This document shows, piece after piece, positions 2,414 to 9,572 of a DNA stretch of 64,000 nt. A model generated the notes under the pieces. That model worked only from the letters and a program-made list of their open reading frames with translations. It made no database searches and was not told where the DNA came from. The stretch is taken from the NCBI RefSeq assembly GCF_900110215.1, contig NZ_FOCX01000002.1:1-64000 (forward strand), in the 5' to 3' direction. A program made the position numbers and the translations under genes. Numbering within the stretch: position 1 is the first letter of the stretch; each line of letters starts with the position of its first letter. Origin of the DNA: Halorientalis persicus (GTDB taxonomy: Archaea > Halobacteriota > Halobacteria > Halobacteriales > Haloarculaceae).

Positions 2414-2647
2414 ATGGCACAAATGACAGAAGTTTATCAGAAAGCTCCGTTTTCGGGGGTCGAACTCGGAATGAAAGCGTTTCTGAAAGAGAATCGAACC
2501 CCGTCAGGGGGTTCGGGGTTCGTTCATCCCCTGACTTGGAATGGCATGGGGAGTTCACTCACCACCGACGAAGTGATTCCGACACCTCAAACCGAGAGTC
2601 CTCACTGCCAAATAACTCTTGATAATACGACCTCCGGCTTCTATTAA
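2414..2647 (+). CDS. doubtful small open frame (77 aa)
   Basis: From the ATG at 2414 (MAQMTEVYQKAP) a 77-codon frame runs to TAA. It overlaps the nested inverted repeats at 2495-2535, its second half is rich in Thr/Ser/Pro with no recognisable fold, and neither composition nor neighbours support it strongly. I list it only because the first 35 residues read plausibly. The stretch may be non-coding. Confidence 0.18.
   Translation: MAQMTEVYQKAPFSGVELGMKAFLKENRTPSGGSGFVHPLTWNGMGSSLTTDEVIPTPQTESPHCQITLDNTTSGFY
2495..2535. repeat. nested inverted repeats
   Basis: CGAACCCC (2495-2502) can pair with GGGGTTCG at 2508-2515 or at 2515-2522. GTCAGGGG (2503-2510) pairs with CCCCTGAC (2528-2535). The two stems are mutually exclusive in part, so the segment could adopt alternative folds. 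Confidence 0.6.
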
Positions 2648-2732
2648 CGGTTCCGAACGCACCCTCTAATAACAACTATGAGTAGGTCTGTTCGGGCGCT
2701 ATAATATATTCTGATACGGTTATCACTGTAAG

Positions 2733-4529
2733 TTATTCACTCTCGTCCCACACATACGCCGCCGCGTCGGGAAGGTCGTCGTACTTGGTCACGAATCCAT
2801 TTTCTGCGAGTGCCTCGGCCTTCTTCCGGGCGTTTCGCTTCTTAACACCTGTCTCGGTGGCTATTTCGCCCACTTTCCCACCTTCAGTACCCTCGTCCTG
2901 AAGGTACCCGGCTACCTCTCGGGCGTCTTCACTGAATAGAACGAGGTGTGCCGCTTCACTCGGCACCCAATCGGGAAGCGCCGCCGTGTTCACGTAGACC
3001 GTCGTGGGTTCGGTGTCGCGCCCGAACCGAAGCACGTCCTGAAGCGTCTGCCGCTTCATGTGTCGGTGAATCTTGTTGCCGAACTCGCCGTAACTCTTCG
3101 CCGTCCCTCGCTTACTGTTTGACGCGACTGCCTCACCCGCATATGCGCCCCACTTCTTGATGTAGGGGTCGCCGTAATGCCGAGAGCCGGAGACGAACCC
3201 GAGGTGCTTGTCTGCGAAGCCTTGGTAACTCAAGACGTTGCTGAAGTTCCGAGGGGTATCAACGTAGTCGAACAACTCACCGTCGTTGTACTCCGGGTAC
3301 ACGTTGTCAATCGCCTTCTTGCTCGTGATGAAGCCGGGTTTCTCGCCTTCTTTCCGGTGTATCCAATGCAAGATTTGCGTGTCTTTCGGAGCTGTGATAC
3401 TCCCATTCCGGTTGTTCTGGTAGGGCTTCAGGTCGTCATTCGTCCTGATTATGGTGTGATTCAACACGTCCGAGACGTACTTTCGCTTCTCGCGGTCTTC
3501 GAGAACGTCACGGTGTGTTAGGTCAAGCCCGGTTGCTATTCGCCACATGGCGGGCGTCGGCGTACCGTCTAAACCGAGGAACCCGTCGGCAATGTCGAAA
3601 TTGGGTGGGTTTAGAAGGTACATCGTGTTTTCGTCGGGGTCACGCACACAGATAGCGTTAGAGTTGACACCTGACGCGTTGATTCCAAACAAGTCAGCCC
3701 AATCCGAGACAGGTAGCCGTTCCCACCCATTTCCTAACTCATGCCCGGCCAGTAGCGCGAATGTCAGCGTCGGAGCGAGCGCATGGTACTCTTCATTCGG
3801 GGATTCGAGGACGTTACTGGTGTCTTGATACAGTCCGTGTTCTCCATACCAATCAAGCGCGTCAGCACACCTATTGTCGTCGGGCTGTGCGTTCAGCACG
3901 TCCTGATAACTGTCGTAGCGTAGGGTGACGCTCTGAAGGAAGCGGTCAACGACCTGTTGCGGGTTCTTGAACTCGGTTTCAAACTCACTCACCGAGAACT
4001 CGTCTTTGACGACGAAGCGCCCCTTCAGGTACTCGTCTCGGTAGGCATGGCTCGGGTCGCCAATCAGAACGTCGGGTGCCGACGGGTCGAAGTTAAGCAG
4101 GTCAAGATACCTACAGTCCCCGCCGCACCGTATATCGTCAAGTCGCTCATGGATTTCCCGACCGCCGACACCGTTCTTGTAGGACTTCACTGCCCGACCG
4201 TCGTAGTGGTCTTGGTCGCTCCTATCGAACGCAGGGCAGTATTTGTGCGGGGTCGGGATACGCTTGTGAGTGAGTCCAAACTTGTCGCAGAAGGCTTCAG
4301 CGTCACTCTTGAGATAGTCTCGGGACGCGAGATAGAGTAACGGCGTCTCGGTCTTGCTGGCGATTTTCAGGGCCGAATAGGATTTACCTGCGACCGGCAG
4401 GGCTTCGAGTAGCACGTCCCCGTGTCCATTGTAGATTCCTCTGATTGCACGTTCCACGCGGCGTCGAACGCCTTCCAAGGTGGGTGGCCGATACGGTGGA
4501 TTCTTACTGATAGCGTTCCTACTTTGCAT
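2733..4529 (-). CDS. degenerate SF2-helicase-like ATPase with C-terminal winged helix
   Basis: The start chosen is the ATG at 4529 (598 aa); a GTG at 4547 would add six residues. A P-loop of the form AxxxxGKS (ALPVAGKS) lies at about residues 45-52. A Walker-B-like FVVKDEF follows at about 175, and a motif-III-like LGLDGTPTPAMW at about 315. Later come GFVSGSRHYGDPYIKKWGAYAG and a QTLQDVLRFGRD segment placed like the final helicase motif. The last 60 residues form a winged helix (VGEIATETGVKKRNARKKAEALAENGF in pieces). Such proteins occur in haloarchaeal integrated plasmids and may drive replication; I infer that role. The gene is divergent from the PQQ-nuclease gene and lies beside structured GC-skewed DNA, which could be its origin. 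Confidence 0.6.
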   Translation of the reverse strand: MQSRNAISKNPPYRPPTLEGVRRRVERAIRGIYNGHGDVLLEALPVAGKSYSALKIASKTETPLLYLASRDYLKSDAEAFCDKFGLTHKRIPTPHKYCPAFDRSDQDHYDGRAVKSYKNGVGGREIHERLDDIRCGGDCRYLDLLNFDPSAPDVLIGDPSHAYRDEYLKGRFVVKDEFSVSEFETEFKNPQQVVDRFLQSVTLRYDSYQDVLNAQPDDNRCADALDWYGEHGLYQDTSNVLESPNEEYHALAPTLTFALLAGHELGNGWERLPVSDWADLFGINASGVNSNAICVRDPDENTMYLLNPPNFDIADGFLGLDGTPTPAMWRIATGLDLTHRDVLEDREKRKYVSDVLNHTIIRTNDDLKPYQNNRNGSITAPKDTQILHWIHRKEGEKPGFITSKKAIDNVYPEYNDGELFDYVDTPRNFSNVLSYQGFADKHLGFVSGSRHYGDPYIKKWGAYAGEAVASNSKRGTAKSYGEFGNKIHRHMKRQTLQDVLRFGRDTEPTTVYVNTAALPDWVPSEAAHLVLFSEDAREVAGYLQDEGTEGGKVGEIATETGVKKRNARKKAEALAENGFVTKYDDLPDAAAYVWDESE

Positions 4530-4740
4530 TGTCGTAGCCTCTTCCACGACAGGGGAAGGACGACCTTGGCCGGACGACCCTTCCCTCTTCCTCGCAACCG
4601 AACGGATAGCGGTGCGTGTCGTGTGGTTGGTTCACCTACTTTCTCGGAACACAAAAACGGTCGCACAGGCGTACCTCAAGGCTTCACGCGAGCGTGTAGA
4701 AGTTTCGCGCTGGTAGGGCTATTGGAATCACACATACACC

Positions 4741-4777
4741 CTATTTAAGGTTGACTTGCTAATCAGTCATAAATATC
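4741..4777. promoter_or_regulatory. divergent promoter region of the PQQ-nuclease gene
   Basis: Two A/T-rich TATA-like elements stand out: CTATTTAAGG at 4741-4750 and CATAAATATC at 4768-4777. The second lies about 35 bases before the ATG at 4810, suitable for a short-leader transcript of the + strand gene. The first reads CTTAAATAG on the other strand and might serve the helicase-like gene, with a leader of about 200 bases. Confidence 0.4.
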
Positions 4778-4809
4778 ATATCGCTCCGTCCGAAGTTAGT
4801 TATATACCA

Positions 4810-7572
4810 ATGCCAGAGGATTTCTCTCGAAGGTCTATTTTGGGGTTATTCGCCTCTGGAGTATCGCTTGCTGATATTTCGCCAGCACAACGGAGCAATG
4901 AACTGTCCGGCCCTTCGCTTGCGTCGGACTGGCCCGAATTTAGAGGGAACAAACAGAATACAGGAGTCAAATCGTCGGACGTAGGGCCTTCGGATTTCCC
5001 TCTTGAGTTGGCATGGTCGTTTGACGGTGGTAGTAAGATAGATAACCCAAATGAATACGAAGAAGGGTATACATATCACCGGGTTATCACTCCGTCACCA
5101 TCAGTCGTTGGCGGGACTGTTTATGCACCTGTGTATCAAGGGGGTGTATTCGCGTTAGACGCAAAGACTGGGAGAGATATTTGGGAATATGACATGGACT
5201 CATACGGGAGATTATTCTCTTCACCAGTGGTCCATAGAGATTCACTCTACGTTGGTTCAACAAATCAATATGCGGCAACAATTAAAATCCAATCTTCTTC
5301 CGGCACCGTGAGCTGGACCGAAGGCGATAATCTGGATAATAGCAAAGAGAGTTCGCCAAAATATATGCAATCAGATGGTTCTGGGTTTGTGATTATCGGT
5401 GGTAGTGATGAAGATGGAACTGGCTATCATGCCTACGATTCAGAGACCGGCGAAAAATCCTTTTCAATAGTTCCCTCTGTGTCTTCAGGACTTTTCAGTG
5501 CTACTTCCACTCCTGCCCATGATTCTGGATACTTGTATACCTCTATTGACCAAGGAATTGGGAAATTTGAAATAAATGAGGGTGGGGCCAGAACGGTCTG
5601 GGAAAATAGAGAAGTAGACCATATCATTTCTTCACCAGCAATAAAGAATGGTTCAATATATTTCGGGGATGATAGTGGAAATATCGTTAGTGTTGATTCA
5701 GATTCCGGGAATATAGAGTGGGTGAAAAATCCCGAACAGTACAATTCTTGGATAGTATCTTCACCTGCTGTAGATTCAGATTCGCTATATATTGGAGTTA
5801 GCGGTGATGAAAGTGGTACTCTCTATGCTCTCGATACAGAGCAAGGTGAGGTTCAGTGGGAAAAACAAGGACTGCGAGAGTTGATTTCGTCCCCTATCGT
5901 ATACGATAATACTGTATTTATAGGCTCTAAAAACGGGAATGTCTATGCATTGAATAAGCAGAATGGGGGAACACGCTGGCAATATGACGTTGGTACGCCA
6001 ATTTCATCTTCGCCAGTCATTGCTGGAGAATATTTGTTTGTTACTGACAATAAAGGGGTCGTCCACGCCTTTGGGCCTAAAGGGTCAAGAGCCTACACGT
6101 TGATACAACGGGCTAAACAAGCACGAGGATACTTTGGAGTAAAACGTTCTGTCTCAAACTTTCTTGGTCGAGATAACCTACTTCGTAGAGCCGAACAGGC
6201 GTACAATCAGGCCAAGTACGAAGAATCTGAACGACTTGCCAGAAAGTCTATAAACAAAATAGAAACTGCGGATGATATAATCACGGGTACCGTTGTCAGC
6301 AGTACAGGGATTGCCTCAATAGTTGGTGGTAAAAAAGGATTTGATAGGTACAAGTGGCATAAGGTCAAACAGGAATATCGGGATTTAATTTCGAGGTCTG
6401 AAGACATATTCAATTCGTATCCGGGAGAGACTGAATCACTATCTAATGGAATCAGAACAGTAGACCCGAGTAACTATGATTCTATTGAGCAGGCTGAAGA
6501 GGAAATTAATAGTGTGACCAATAGTTTAGAGAGCATATCAAAGATAAATGATAAATATAGAGAAATTGAAAATAGGTTAGAATCTGTGGGTAATGGTGAG
6601 TATGAGAACCCACTCAAGAACACAATTGAGGACGTTCAACAGAGTGACTTCTTGCAGATAGGTAGTTATGAATCGGAAATAAAGAAGTCAAAAAAGATAG
6701 TAGATGGCATCGAGAAAAAAGAGAAATTACTGGACGATATTGAGGATGATTCCGGAATTGTCTCTAAAAGTCATTTTTATACCGCTATAGAAAGGACAGA
6801 CCCGTATACGAAGCCTGATTCCGCTATCGAACATACAAATAAAATTCGAGAACTACGTAGTTGCTCTATCGAGTTGAATAAAATCCAACAATGGAACAGG
6901 AGAGTCCCAACCGAAGCGACAAAGAATAAGATAATCCAAGAATTAGAATCTACGCCTGATTCAATCGCTATTGGTAAGATTAGGCAAGAAGTTGAAAAAC
7001 ATCAGCGCCTCCGTGACCGAGTCAAGAATATCCGGGATTTCCTACGAAGCGTTGATATAAGTCAAACTGATATTGTGGAGAGCGAGGCTCAAGAGAAAAT
7101 ACAATCCGCAATCACCGAAGGCGACCCCGAAATAATAAGAGAGTTGAACAATCGAATAGAGCGTATTTCTAACACGGTCTGGGAACCTAATGATTTGTTT
7201 GAGTATTCACCCTACCAGTTTGAAAGACTCGTGGCTCAATTGTGGGAGAACTACGGGTATTCGACTCAAGTATCTTCCAAGAGTGGAGACGAGGGTGTTG
7301 ATGTATATGCTAAAAATGGCGATGAAATCGTAGCAATTCAGGTTAAGCAGTATACACCCGGCAAGAGTAAAGTCACCCCATCGACTGTTAGGGAAATGGC
7401 AAGTCCTTTAGCAAAAGGGAATGCCACTCATTCAGTTATTGTGACCAGTAGCACGTTCACGAAGAATGCTGTCCAAGAAGCACAGTCATATGGAGAGAGA
7501 ATGAAGTTGATTGGCCAACAGGGGTTATTAGAAATGCTTACTGATTCCTATATCCAACCGCCGAGAGACTAA
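4810..7572 (+). CDS. PQQ-type beta-propeller fused to an Mrr-type endonuclease domain
   Basis: A 920-residue multi-domain protein. Residues 1-27 look like a Tat leader (SRRSILGLFASGV, then a probable cleavage region). Residues about 40-424 are PQQ/BamB-like propeller blades (WPEFRGNKQNTG, then repeated GxVYALN, WxxxxG and SSPxV elements). Residues 450-485 are TPR-like, 490-508 form one possible membrane segment (IITGTVVSSTGIASIVGG), and about 510-790 are long charged helices. Residues 796-920 are an Mrr catalytic domain: YQFERLVAQLW, then GDEGVDV with D831, then IQVKQY with Q844 and K846. If the leader and membrane segment are real, the propeller is outside and the nuclease inside. The coding DNA is clearly more A/T-rich than its neighbours, pointing to transfer. 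An ATG at 4810 is preferred over a TTG at 4756. Confidence 0.8.
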   Translation: MPEDFSRRSILGLFASGVSLADISPAQRSNELSGPSLASDWPEFRGNKQNTGVKSSDVGPSDFPLELAWSFDGGSKIDNPNEYEEGYTYHRVITPSPSVVGGTVYAPVYQGGVFALDAKTGRDIWEYDMDSYGRLFSSPVVHRDSLYVGSTNQYAATIKIQSSSGTVSWTEGDNLDNSKESSPKYMQSDGSGFVIIGGSDEDGTGYHAYDSETGEKSFSIVPSVSSGLFSATSTPAHDSGYLYTSIDQGIGKFEINEGGARTVWENREVDHIISSPAIKNGSIYFGDDSGNIVSVDSDSGNIEWVKNPEQYNSWIVSSPAVDSDSLYIGVSGDESGTLYALDTEQGEVQWEKQGLRELISSPIVYDNTVFIGSKNGNVYALNKQNGGTRWQYDVGTPISSSPVIAGEYLFVTDNKGVVHAFGPKGSRAYTLIQRAKQARGYFGVKRSVSNFLGRDNLLRRAEQAYNQAKYEESERLARKSINKIETADDIITGTVVSSTGIASIVGGKKGFDRYKWHKVKQEYRDLISRSEDIFNSYPGETESLSNGIRTVDPSNYDSIEQAEEEINSVTNSLESISKINDKYREIENRLESVGNGEYENPLKNTIEDVQQSDFLQIGSYESEIKKSKKIVDGIEKKEKLLDDIEDDSGIVSKSHFYTAIERTDPYTKPDSAIEHTNKIRELRSCSIELNKIQQWNRRVPTEATKNKIIQELESTPDSIAIGKIRQEVEKHQRLRDRVKNIRDFLRSVDISQTDIVESEAQEKIQSAITEGDPEIIRELNNRIERISNTVWEPNDLFEYSPYQFERLVAQLWENYGYSTQVSSKSGDEGVDVYAKNGDEIVAIQVKQYTPGKSKVTPSTVREMASPLAKGNATHSVIVTSSTFTKNAVQEAQSYGERMKLIGQQGLLEMLTDSYIQPPRD

Positions 7573-7611
7573 ATGTGGGTTTTAGTTGGATTTTGTCAGT
7601 TCTAAATGGGT

Positions 7612-8727
7612 TTAAAATGCTTCTTGAAGCACCTTATTTCGATACTTTTTATCAACTGCCACCCGGTGAACAAGTGGCTCATGCGAGTCCTGATATGGCG
7701 ACCCACTCGCTCGCTCTAACTCGTCGTAGACTGCGCTAATCCACGCTCGACGGAACGACTGTGATACCATTCTCTCCGGCTTTCCGGTGAACTCGACCCA
7801 ATGCGGTGTCTCGTCCGTGTCTTCCCCGGAGAGGGCATTGAACGCCATGTGTTCGTCGGCAGTTTCGATTAGTTCGTCCACGTTCTCGGTGTCGGCACCA
7901 ACGATGAACCCGGTCGTCGGTTCGCCCGAAAAGAGCGCACCGAGGACGTAGCGATTGTTGATGGATACGACGATTCGGTCGTCTTGGGCGATGGATGTGA
8001 CCAGCCGCGCGTCGTCTTCAGCAAGACCAGTCACGGCTATCAGGTCGTTCAGCAGGTCGAAGAAGTCAGTCGCCCATTCTCGATTCGAGGCTTGTTGAAC
8101 GCGATGTACCAGCGTCTCGTGCGCCTCTTCGTCAGCGTCAATGTCTTCGGTGGTAAGTTCGGTGTCCTCTACGAAGGTCGCGCTCACTCGTGGGGCGTCC
8201 GAGGAAAGCGAGGTACCGGACTCGGTATGGGTCGTTGGTGTAGAGGAAGACGATTCCACGAACTCATCCAATTCCCCGCTATCGACAGGGCCGCTTTCAG
8301 ACCAGAGGCGGTCGAACCACTCGTTCAGTTCGTCTACCCTTTCGTCGTCGGTGAACCGAACCCCTATCTCTGTCCGACCGACCACGCCCTTCTCCGTGAG
8401 GTTGGCCGAGCCGACGACAGCCGTATCGTCGGATATGATGGCCTTCGCGTGAACATCGGGGAAGTGGTGAATCCGCTCGCGGTTGGTCGCTATCAACTCG
8501 TGTATCTCGCCCCGCGTACTGCCACCGAACGTTCCAATCCACGCTTCCACATCGGTCAATATCCGCCAATCGTCAGCAGAGGTGAGAACGCTTTTCAGGT
8601 AGCTCGGGCCAATATACGGACAAACAATTCGTACTTGCTTGGCGTCTGCTGTTTCGCGGATTGCTTTATCGAACGGCGATTTCGCTCGCGTATAGCCTTC
8701 TTCGGAATGGTATAGCAGACCGGGCAT
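7612..8727 (-). CDS. phospholipase-D-fold (HKD) nuclease-like protein
   Basis: 371 residues. The N-terminal 150 form a PLD-like domain with a single HKD motif: H93 and K95 in DVHAKAI, then GSANLT with S107 and N109. Before it comes the strand VRIVCPYIGPSYL typical of the fold. A Ser/Thr-rich acidic linker (about 155-200) leads to a C-terminal domain of about 170 residues that I do not recognise. Single-HKD proteins dimerise to form one active site, and many are nucleases, for example in restriction and DISARM-like defence systems. The gene begins two bases after the stop of the Mrr-like gene, so both are surely one operon. It converges on the PQQ-nuclease gene with a 39-base gap. Confidence 0.75.
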   Translation of the reverse strand: MPGLLYHSEEGYTRAKSPFDKAIRETADAKQVRIVCPYIGPSYLKSVLTSADDWRILTDVEAWIGTFGGSTRGEIHELIATNRERIHHFPDVHAKAIISDDTAVVGSANLTEKGVVGRTEIGVRFTDDERVDELNEWFDRLWSESGPVDSGELDEFVESSSSTPTTHTESGTSLSSDAPRVSATFVEDTELTTEDIDADEEAHETLVHRVQQASNREWATDFFDLLNDLIAVTGLAEDDARLVTSIAQDDRIVVSINNRYVLGALFSGEPTTGFIVGADTENVDELIETADEHMAFNALSGEDTDETPHWVEFTGKPERMVSQSFRRAWISAVYDELERASGSPYQDSHEPLVHRVAVDKKYRNKVLQEAF

Positions 8728-8729
8728 AC

Positions 8730-9572
8730 CTAATCGTTGTTATCTACTTCTTCTACGAATGTGCGAAGGGCTTCGGTCAGGGACACGAACTCGTGGGTAT
8801 CTCCCAATTCGTCTTTCAAGGTCAAGTCCGCGTCGTCAAGTAAGTCCGTGGTATACTCGATAGTTCCCGAAGAGTATGTGACTCGATAGTCCACAGAAGC
8901 GAGTTGATAGAACTCGCCCTGAATCAGCAACAATGATTCCTCGAACTCTTCTGTATATTCACCTTCATCCACCGAATTGAGCCGTTGGTTCAACCGGTCA
9001 AGTAGAGTTTCGCCCGTCGGTTCTCTATCGAGGGTGTATATCATGCTGTTCTGTGGAGTGAAAGTCGCCTCTAATTCTCTCCCCTCTTGTTCCTCTTCCA
9101 CCGCACGAACATCCATGTCGAGGACTTCAATTCTTGGTTGGTTCACAGTCAAATCTATGTTGACCTGCCGAATCCGGTCTTCAAGGTCAATATCAGGGAT
9201 TATTTGTCGTAGTGTCCACAACTCAATTCCTGACCCTTCTGCCCTCTCTTTTGCTCCGCTCTGAAAGCCATTCTTCGAGACAACGACTCCCTTATCGGCG
9301 TCGGAATTATCCAAGACGCCAACCAAACTGTCTACAACTTCTTTTTTAATCGCCCTGCCTTGGAACTTGCACTCAATGAGAGTCGTAACGGTATATCGCC
9401 CTCGTTTATCCCACACTACTACATCCATCTCCTTCGTGCCGCCCGAGTGAACCGGATATTCGTATTCGTGTTCTACTTCAACATCCTCGCCAAGAGCGTG
9501 TAGACCAGCGACGATTTTCTGATACGACTTCCAATCAAGGTTTGACCATTCTGTCTTTTCCGGGTCTACCAT
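8730..9572 (-). CDS. Mrr-like restriction endonuclease-fold protein
   Basis: 280 residues, first gene of a two-gene operon. The N-terminal 130 form an Mrr/PD-(D/E)XK nuclease domain. Helix WKSYQKIVAGLHALG is followed by D50 in KEMDVVV, then E67 and K69 in LIECKF, then KGVVVSKNGFQSGAKERA and the strand IELWTL. This matches endonucleases that cut methylated or foreign DNA, and VSPR-like relatives. The other 150 residues are of unknown fold and rich in beta strands. There is no methyltransferase gene beside it, so a classical restriction-modification pair is excluded within this window. It could be a methylation-dependent enzyme or work together with the PLD protein. Confidence 0.75.
   Translation of the reverse strand: MVDPEKTEWSNLDWKSYQKIVAGLHALGEDVEVEHEYEYPVHSGGTKEMDVVVWDKRGRYTVTTLIECKFQGRAIKKEVVDSLVGVLDNSDADKGVVVSKNGFQSGAKERAEGSGIELWTLRQIIPDIDLEDRIRQVNIDLTVNQPRIEVLDMDVRAVEEEQEGRELEATFTPQNSMIYTLDREPTGETLLDRLNQRLNSVDEGEYTEEFEESLLLIQGEFYQLASVDYRVTYSSGTIEYTTDLLDDADLTLKDELGDTHEFVSLTEALRTFVEEVDNND

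What the first reader, a model, noticed from the sequence alone, without database searches (positions are those of the whole stretch)
4810..7572. Propeller-to-nuclease fusion that may span the membrane
One gene joins a Tat-type leader, a PQQ/BamB-like propeller, one possible membrane segment (residues about 490-508), a 280-residue helical stalk and an intact Mrr nuclease core (D831, Q844, K846). I do not know a described system with a propeller on the outside linked to a DNA-cutting domain inside. Such a layout could sense an external signal, for example virus adsorption, envelope damage or a ligand, and release a nuclease within. The coding DNA is far richer in A/T than the surrounding genes, which fits recent transfer. 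The topology is inferred; the domains are seen directly.
Basis: partly seen in the sequence, partly recalled or inferred. Interest (0 to 1): 0.85.

Follow-up and report, generated by a model that had tools for sequence, protein, structure and literature searches.

The report
Outside-in propeller-tethered DNA-cutting protein
In a salt-loving archaeon, one gene joins a sensor-like propeller that is marked for export to the cell surface, a membrane-crossing segment and a DNA-cutting domain that should sit inside the cell; divergent relatives in other haloarchaea keep the same layout, which looks like a surface-triggered defence against invading DNA.

Summary
The 920-residue protein (4810-7569, +) has a Tat leader, a PQQ/BamB-type propeller (Pfam 4e-34), a hydrophobic segment at 490-507, a helical stalk and an Mrr nuclease core (1e-24) with D831, Q844 and K846. 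It is a family, not a one-off: 8 of 392 haloarchaeal genomes carry intact copies (7 divergent proteins, about 21% identical, plus a near-copy), and one copy is decayed. Twin arginines, D831 and K846 are invariant. Averaged over the seven, the strongest hydrophobic segment falls exactly at 490-506 (P=0.0005) and is followed by positive charges, indicating C-terminus inside. Four members add an intact J domain, which should need cytoplasmic Hsp70. Related stalk-Mrr proteins carry other membrane modules. Several copies lie among methylases, helicases, integrases or plasmid genes; two have ordinary neighbours. The window's gene was recently exchanged with another family.

Best explanation: an exported propeller receptor tethered through the membrane to a DNA-cutting domain, probably for defence. 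Architecture and catalytic residues are shown by sequence; topology is strongly inferred; trigger and cleavage are untested. Nearest known: a propeller-Mrr fusion in reversed order, a membrane-anchored coiled-coil nuclease, and Zorya. A new variant of a known kind.

The parts
4742..4748 (+). TATA-like box (TATTTAA), possible promoter; favours the ATG at 4810 over the TTG at 4756
   Evidence: sequence; weak, consensus only
4810..4887 (+). Tat-type leader, residues 1-26 (MPEDFSRRSILGLFASGVSLADISPA); RR at residues 7-8
   Evidence: RR and L11 invariant in 8 full-length members; propeller proteins of the same genome are also RR-led, one with a lipobox
4900..6099 (+). PQQ/BamB-type beta-propeller, residues 31-430 (proposed outside)
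   Evidence: PF13360 4.3e-34; PDB BamB and designed propellers
6100..6276 (+). helical segment between propeller and membrane, residues 431-489, with invariant A461 and Y470
   Evidence: alignment A4; helix in single-sequence model of low confidence
6277..6330 (+). membrane segment, residues 490-507, IITGTVVSSTGIASIVGG
   Evidence: strongest segment of the family-averaged hydropathy, P=0.0005
6331..7194 (+). positively charged cytoplasmic start (508-527) and helical stalk, residues 508-795
   Evidence: K/R 38 against D/E 18 in the 20 residues after the segment over 7 members; stalk profile A2 finds the family
7195..7569 (+). Mrr nuclease domain, residues 796-920; D831 (7300-7302), Q844 (7339-7341), K846 (7345-7347)
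   Evidence: PF04471 1.4e-24; model pLDDT 91, MspJI/AspBHI fold, LlaBIII nuclease domain by profile
7612..8727 (-). adjacent PLD-family protein, weakly DrmC-like (371 aa); kept next to the gene in G378
   Evidence: PF13091 7.8e-13; DrmC equivalog model below its cut-off, PADLOC DrmC hits; 86.5% identical in G378
8730..9572 (-). second Mrr-like nuclease (280 aa), absent from the G378 copy
   Evidence: PF04471 8e-13; not in L056
2733..4547 (-). 604-aa protein with a possible Walker-A motif (LPVAGKS), 89% identical in G378; no family match

Best explanation
The gene encodes a single-chain membrane receptor-nuclease. The Tat leader exports the folded propeller to the cell surface; the segment at 490-507 stops transfer and leaves the stalk and the Mrr (PD-(D/E)xK, D-QxK) nuclease in the cytoplasm. 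The propeller binds something at the envelope (for example a virus particle, an incoming mating or conjugative partner, or damaged envelope), and the stalk passes this inwards by clustering or release, so that the nuclease dimerises and cuts DNA near the entry site or the cell's own DNA. Its most likely role is defence against viruses or mobile elements. Shown: domain order, conserved leader, aligned hydrophobic segment, positive-inside bias, intact catalytic residues, several distant members, mobility. Inferred: topology in the living cell, nuclease activity, trigger, defence role.
For: Seven divergent full-length members with the same order; RR, D831 and K846 invariant; hydrophobic segment co-aligned, P=0.0005, and followed by K/R excess; J domain after the nuclease in four members (PF00226) with HPD intact in all four, which fits cytoplasm only; sister stalk-Mrr proteins anchored by unambiguous membrane segments, one kind with an ectodomain between two of them, whose reading frame is coding (pN/pS about 0.15); Mrr fold match to MspJI and AspBHI. 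Context: DUF1156/HmaB methylases, DrmD/HmaA-like helicase and TmtA (G082), HKD-Snf2 and IIG-like protein on a contig with conjugation genes (G031), integrase and DrmMI/IIG methylase (G320), integrase and KAP NTPase (G484); 98% identical copy in another family; decayed copy in G464; patchy, 8 of 392 genomes.
Against: The membrane segment is weakly hydrophobic in most members. The G487 member lies among apparent core genes including a uvrA-like gene, and the G052 member among ordinary plasmid genes with only an HNH neighbour. No member has been tested. No ligand is known, and the propeller is the least conserved part.
Confidence: 0.55

Rival explanations
1. Membrane-tethered restriction enzyme without signalling: the propeller and membrane segment only hold the nuclease at the envelope (or stabilise it), and the Mrr domain acts constitutively on modified or foreign DNA as it enters.
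For: Membrane-anchored Mrr proteins with no large ectodomain are common in haloarchaea; the domain fold is that of modification-dependent enzymes MspJI and AspBHI.
Against: A pure anchor would not need a conserved 400-residue exported propeller; no modified-base recognition domain was found in the protein.
Confidence: 0.25
2. Housekeeping or stress role: the protein links envelope state to chromosome processing or repair at the membrane, with J-domain chaperone control in some members, and is not a defence system.
For: G487 and G052 members lie among ordinary genes; Holliday-junction resolvases share the wider fold; J domains suggest chaperone regulation.
Against: Present in about 2% of genomes, with mobile or defence context in several, a decayed copy and recent transfer between families: not the pattern of a housekeeping gene.
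Confidence: 0.1
3. Wholly cytoplasmic or wholly exported protein: either the leader is not used, or the entire chain is secreted (for example a DNase for scavenging or competition).
For: The membrane segment is marginal in several members.
Against: RR is invariant over very divergent members; C-terminal J domains and the K/R-rich flank need a cytoplasmic C-terminus; homologous stalk-Mrr proteins have strong membrane segments.
Confidence: 0.1

Closest known systems
Propeller-Mrr phage defence protein of E. coli (one of the PD systems of PMC9519451)
   Same: One chain with an Mrr-family nuclease and a beta-propeller; validated anti-phage activity
   [quoted passage not shown] no exported leader or trans-membrane layout is described in the passages read. 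Here the order is reversed, with a Tat leader, a membrane segment and a long stalk
Membrane-anchored DUF4041 coiled-coil nuclease (same paper)
   Different: Described without an ectodomain; a different central domain
Zorya (ZorAB membrane complex with ZorD Mrr-like or ZorE HNH nuclease; PMC11890865)
   Same: Couples an envelope-embedded complex to a cytoplasmic nuclease; the ZorD model matches the Mrr region of this protein
   Different: Multi-protein ion-driven motor with separate nuclease; no propeller; no ZorA or ZorB model matched the neighbours scanned
MspJI, AspBHI and LlaBIII nuclease domains
   Same: Same Mrr-type fold and, for LlaBIII, an aligned D...QxK core
   Different: Soluble enzymes with DNA-recognition modules; no membrane part
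AfsK-type propeller Ser/Thr kinases
   Same: Propeller combined with a signalling output; this propeller also matches the AfsK model, far below its cut-off, and propeller kinases neighbour an Mrr gene in Halomicrobium plasmids
   Different: Output is a kinase, not a nuclease

Membership tests
Mrr catalytic domain (PF04471) | Sequence profile over the curated cut-off | tested here: met
   86.8 bits against cut-off 21
Mrr catalytic domain (PF04471) | D...(E/Q)xK active site on the PD-(D/E)xK fold | tested here: met
   D831, Q844, K846; D and K invariant in 8 members; model matches MspJI and AspBHI
Mrr catalytic domain (PF04471) | DNA cleavage activity | not testable with these tools
   needs purified protein
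Type IV modification-dependent restriction enzyme | A modified-base recognition domain (SRA-like or similar) in the chain | tested here: not met
   Pfam finds only propeller and Mrr domains
BamB | Passes the BamB equivalog model; outer-membrane lipoprotein | tested here: not met
   141.9 bits against cut-off 285.2; no lipobox in the leader
E. coli propeller-Mrr PD system | Order Mrr then propeller | tested here: not met
   Order is propeller then Mrr, with leader and membrane segment; PADLOC matched only Mrr-region models
Zorya | ZorA and ZorB, and a SNF2-type helicase joined to the Mrr domain in ZorD | tested here: not met
   No helicase domain in the protein; none of the four window proteins scanned matched ZorA or ZorB
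Tat substrate | Twin arginine followed by a hydrophobic stretch at the N-terminus | tested here: met
   RR invariant in 8 of 8 and family-mean hydrophobic peak at 10-26; export itself not tested
Single-pass membrane protein, N-out C-in | Hydrophobic segment with positive-inside flank | tested here: met
   on the family; weakly hydrophobic in single members; no dedicated topology predictor was available

The most novel reading that the evidence does not exclude
A one-protein, outside-in immune receptor in archaea: an exported propeller recognises virus adsorption or a mating partner at the surface and, through one membrane helix and a stalk (chaperone-gated by a J domain in some members), switches on a DNA-cutting domain inside, with the sensor part exchanged for other membrane modules in sister proteins.
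Probability: 0.4. Interest if true: 0.85.

Novelty: new variant of a known kind. Interest (0 to 1): 0.68.

Why it matters
Most known restriction-like defences act on DNA once it is inside. A receptor that links the outer cell surface directly to a nuclease in one chain would be a simple way to couple detection of entry to DNA destruction, and would give archaea, whose antiviral repertoire beyond CRISPR and restriction is little explored, a testable surface-sensing immune system. The family is small, modular and easy to delete or mutate, and at least one member sits on a sequenced plasmid of a cultured strain (Halomarina sp. BCD28), where the public record calls it only 'restriction endonuclease'.

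Tried and rejected
Structure prediction of the whole protein from its single sequence failed (pLDDT 40) and was not used for fold searches. Two genome-collection scans and four viral-contig scans found no further full-length member, only Mrr domains. tblastn in plasmids with the window protein listed only matches to the propeller; a relative as query recovered one full-length plasmid-borne member, already known as G052. No phage record holds the stalk plus Mrr. Fast divergence of the propeller as a sign of an arms race was considered and rejected: between the two near-identical copies the first propeller blades differ mostly at synonymous sites (pS 0.24, pN 0.04), which fits recombination of an older allele. 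A single origin of the propeller fusion is neither shown nor excluded by the Mrr tree. The phylum-wide draw of 393 genomes gave no match outside the window's own genome. Paper searches found no description of this architecture, within an open-access library only. Laying the whole genome in the Python box was not available.

Full report
What is there. The window lies in a Haloarculaceae genome (G000, contig 51): other members of family f1 have contigs of exactly the same length as plasmids of Halomicrobium, Halomarina and Halorientalis, and a genome listed as the same genus has the contig length of the Halorientalis marina plasmid, so the host is probably a Halorientalis. The reported gene is a clean 920-residue frame from ATG 4810. 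Pfam finds a PQQ_2 propeller (4.3e-34) and an Mrr_cat domain (1.4e-24), both far over their curated cut-offs. The propeller's solved relatives include BamB and designed PQQ-type propellers. The nuclease domain, modelled with an alignment of twelve sequences at pLDDT 91, matches MspJI, AF1548 and AspBHI, and by profile the nuclease of LlaBIII.

It is a family. A search with stalk and Mrr in 146 genomes of the family, a stalk search in 392 genomes of the order, and a stalk-profile search in 392 genomes of the class gave full-length relatives in G082, G031, G052, G320, G484 (two copies) and G487, a 98% identical copy in G378, and a decayed copy in G464. Intact copies are in 8 of 392 genomes of the class. 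Apart from the G378 copy they are only about 21% identical to the window's protein, yet all have leader, propeller, stalk and Mrr in the same order. R7, R8, D831 and K846 are invariant; Q844 is E in one member. Four of the seven divergent members also end in a J domain with its HPD motif. One member, on a Halomarina plasmid, is annotated simply as restriction endonuclease.

Topology. The window's own hydrophobic segment would not convince alone (KD 1.20). Averaged over the seven divergent members it is the strongest hydrophobic segment of the whole protein, exactly at 490-506, and slightly stronger than the leader. Circular shifts of the rows never reached it (P=0.0005). The 20 residues after it hold 38 K/R and 18 D/E over the seven members, against a whole-protein average of roughly 13 and 23 for the same length. 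The flank therefore points inside. J domains work with Hsp70 in the cytoplasm (general knowledge), which places the C-terminus there too. Sister proteins with a stalk and Mrr have unambiguous membrane segments (L045, L046, L047, L048, L058). In L047 and L048 an ectodomain lies between two segments, and that part of the frame, which the public annotation leaves out, is under purifying selection. Propeller proteins elsewhere in the same genome also carry Tat leaders.

Context and mobility. The G082 member is flanked by DUF1156/HmaB methylases, with a DrmD/HmaA-like helicase and TmtA further out; G031 has relaxase and TraG-like genes, a transposase, and an HKD-Snf2 and a IIG-like protein further out; G320 has an integrase and a DrmMI/IIG-like methylase; G484 has an integrase and a KAP NTPase; G052 has an HNH nuclease among ordinary genes; G487 has core genes. 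DUF1156 genes occur about 0.5 per genome in the family, so the flanking pair in G082 is unlikely by chance. In the window the gene stands beside a PLD-family protein and a second Mrr-like nuclease. The block 2488-8712 is shared with G378, a member of another family: the 3' two thirds of the gene is 99-100% identical, while the flanks are near 88% and the first propeller blades 92-96%. Synonymous differences follow the same mosaic.

Interpretation. The simplest reading is a surface receptor joined to a DNA-cutting effector in one chain. Domain order, catalytic residues and the family-wide membrane signal are shown by sequence. Topology is inferred strongly, nuclease activity and triggering more weakly. 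Defence is favoured over housekeeping by rarity, mobility, decay and neighbours. The validated E. coli propeller-Mrr and membrane-anchored nuclease systems (PMC9519451) and Zorya (PMC11890865) make the parts familiar; the exported propeller with the nuclease inside is, as far as the searches reached, new.

Noticed in passing
L047:8314-10359 and L048:9738-11783: Membrane-anchored Mrr proteins (681 aa) with an ectodomain between two membrane segments; the public annotation of the first starts 228 codons later and drops this part, though it is under purifying selection.
   Followed up: partly
L051-L053 (Halomicrobium genomes; L052 = plasmid pLC1Hm-01): An Mrr nuclease gene sits beside several propeller Ser/Thr kinases (three genomes), with a ParA-like and a chaperonin-family gene nearby; a possible multi-protein counterpart.
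   Followed up: partly
window 8730-9572: A second Mrr-like nuclease next to the gene is missing from the otherwise matching block of G378: an insertion or deletion within the island.
   Followed up: no
L022-L036 and L054: Many haloarchaeal Mrr proteins carry membrane segments after the nuclease domain; membrane-bound Mrr seems to be a general haloarchaeal theme.
   Followed up: no
window 2733-4547: 604-aa protein with a possible Walker-A motif and no match over cut-off in Pfam, NCBIfam, PADLOC or PHROGs, conserved beside the gene in two families.
   Followed up: partly
L078 and L079 (G484 C4 and C5): Two contigs of one genome carry the same propeller-Mrr gene with equal scores, either a duplication or an assembly artefact.
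   Followed up: no
L081 8171-10912: A decayed propeller-Mrr-DnaJ gene in pieces.
   Followed up: partly
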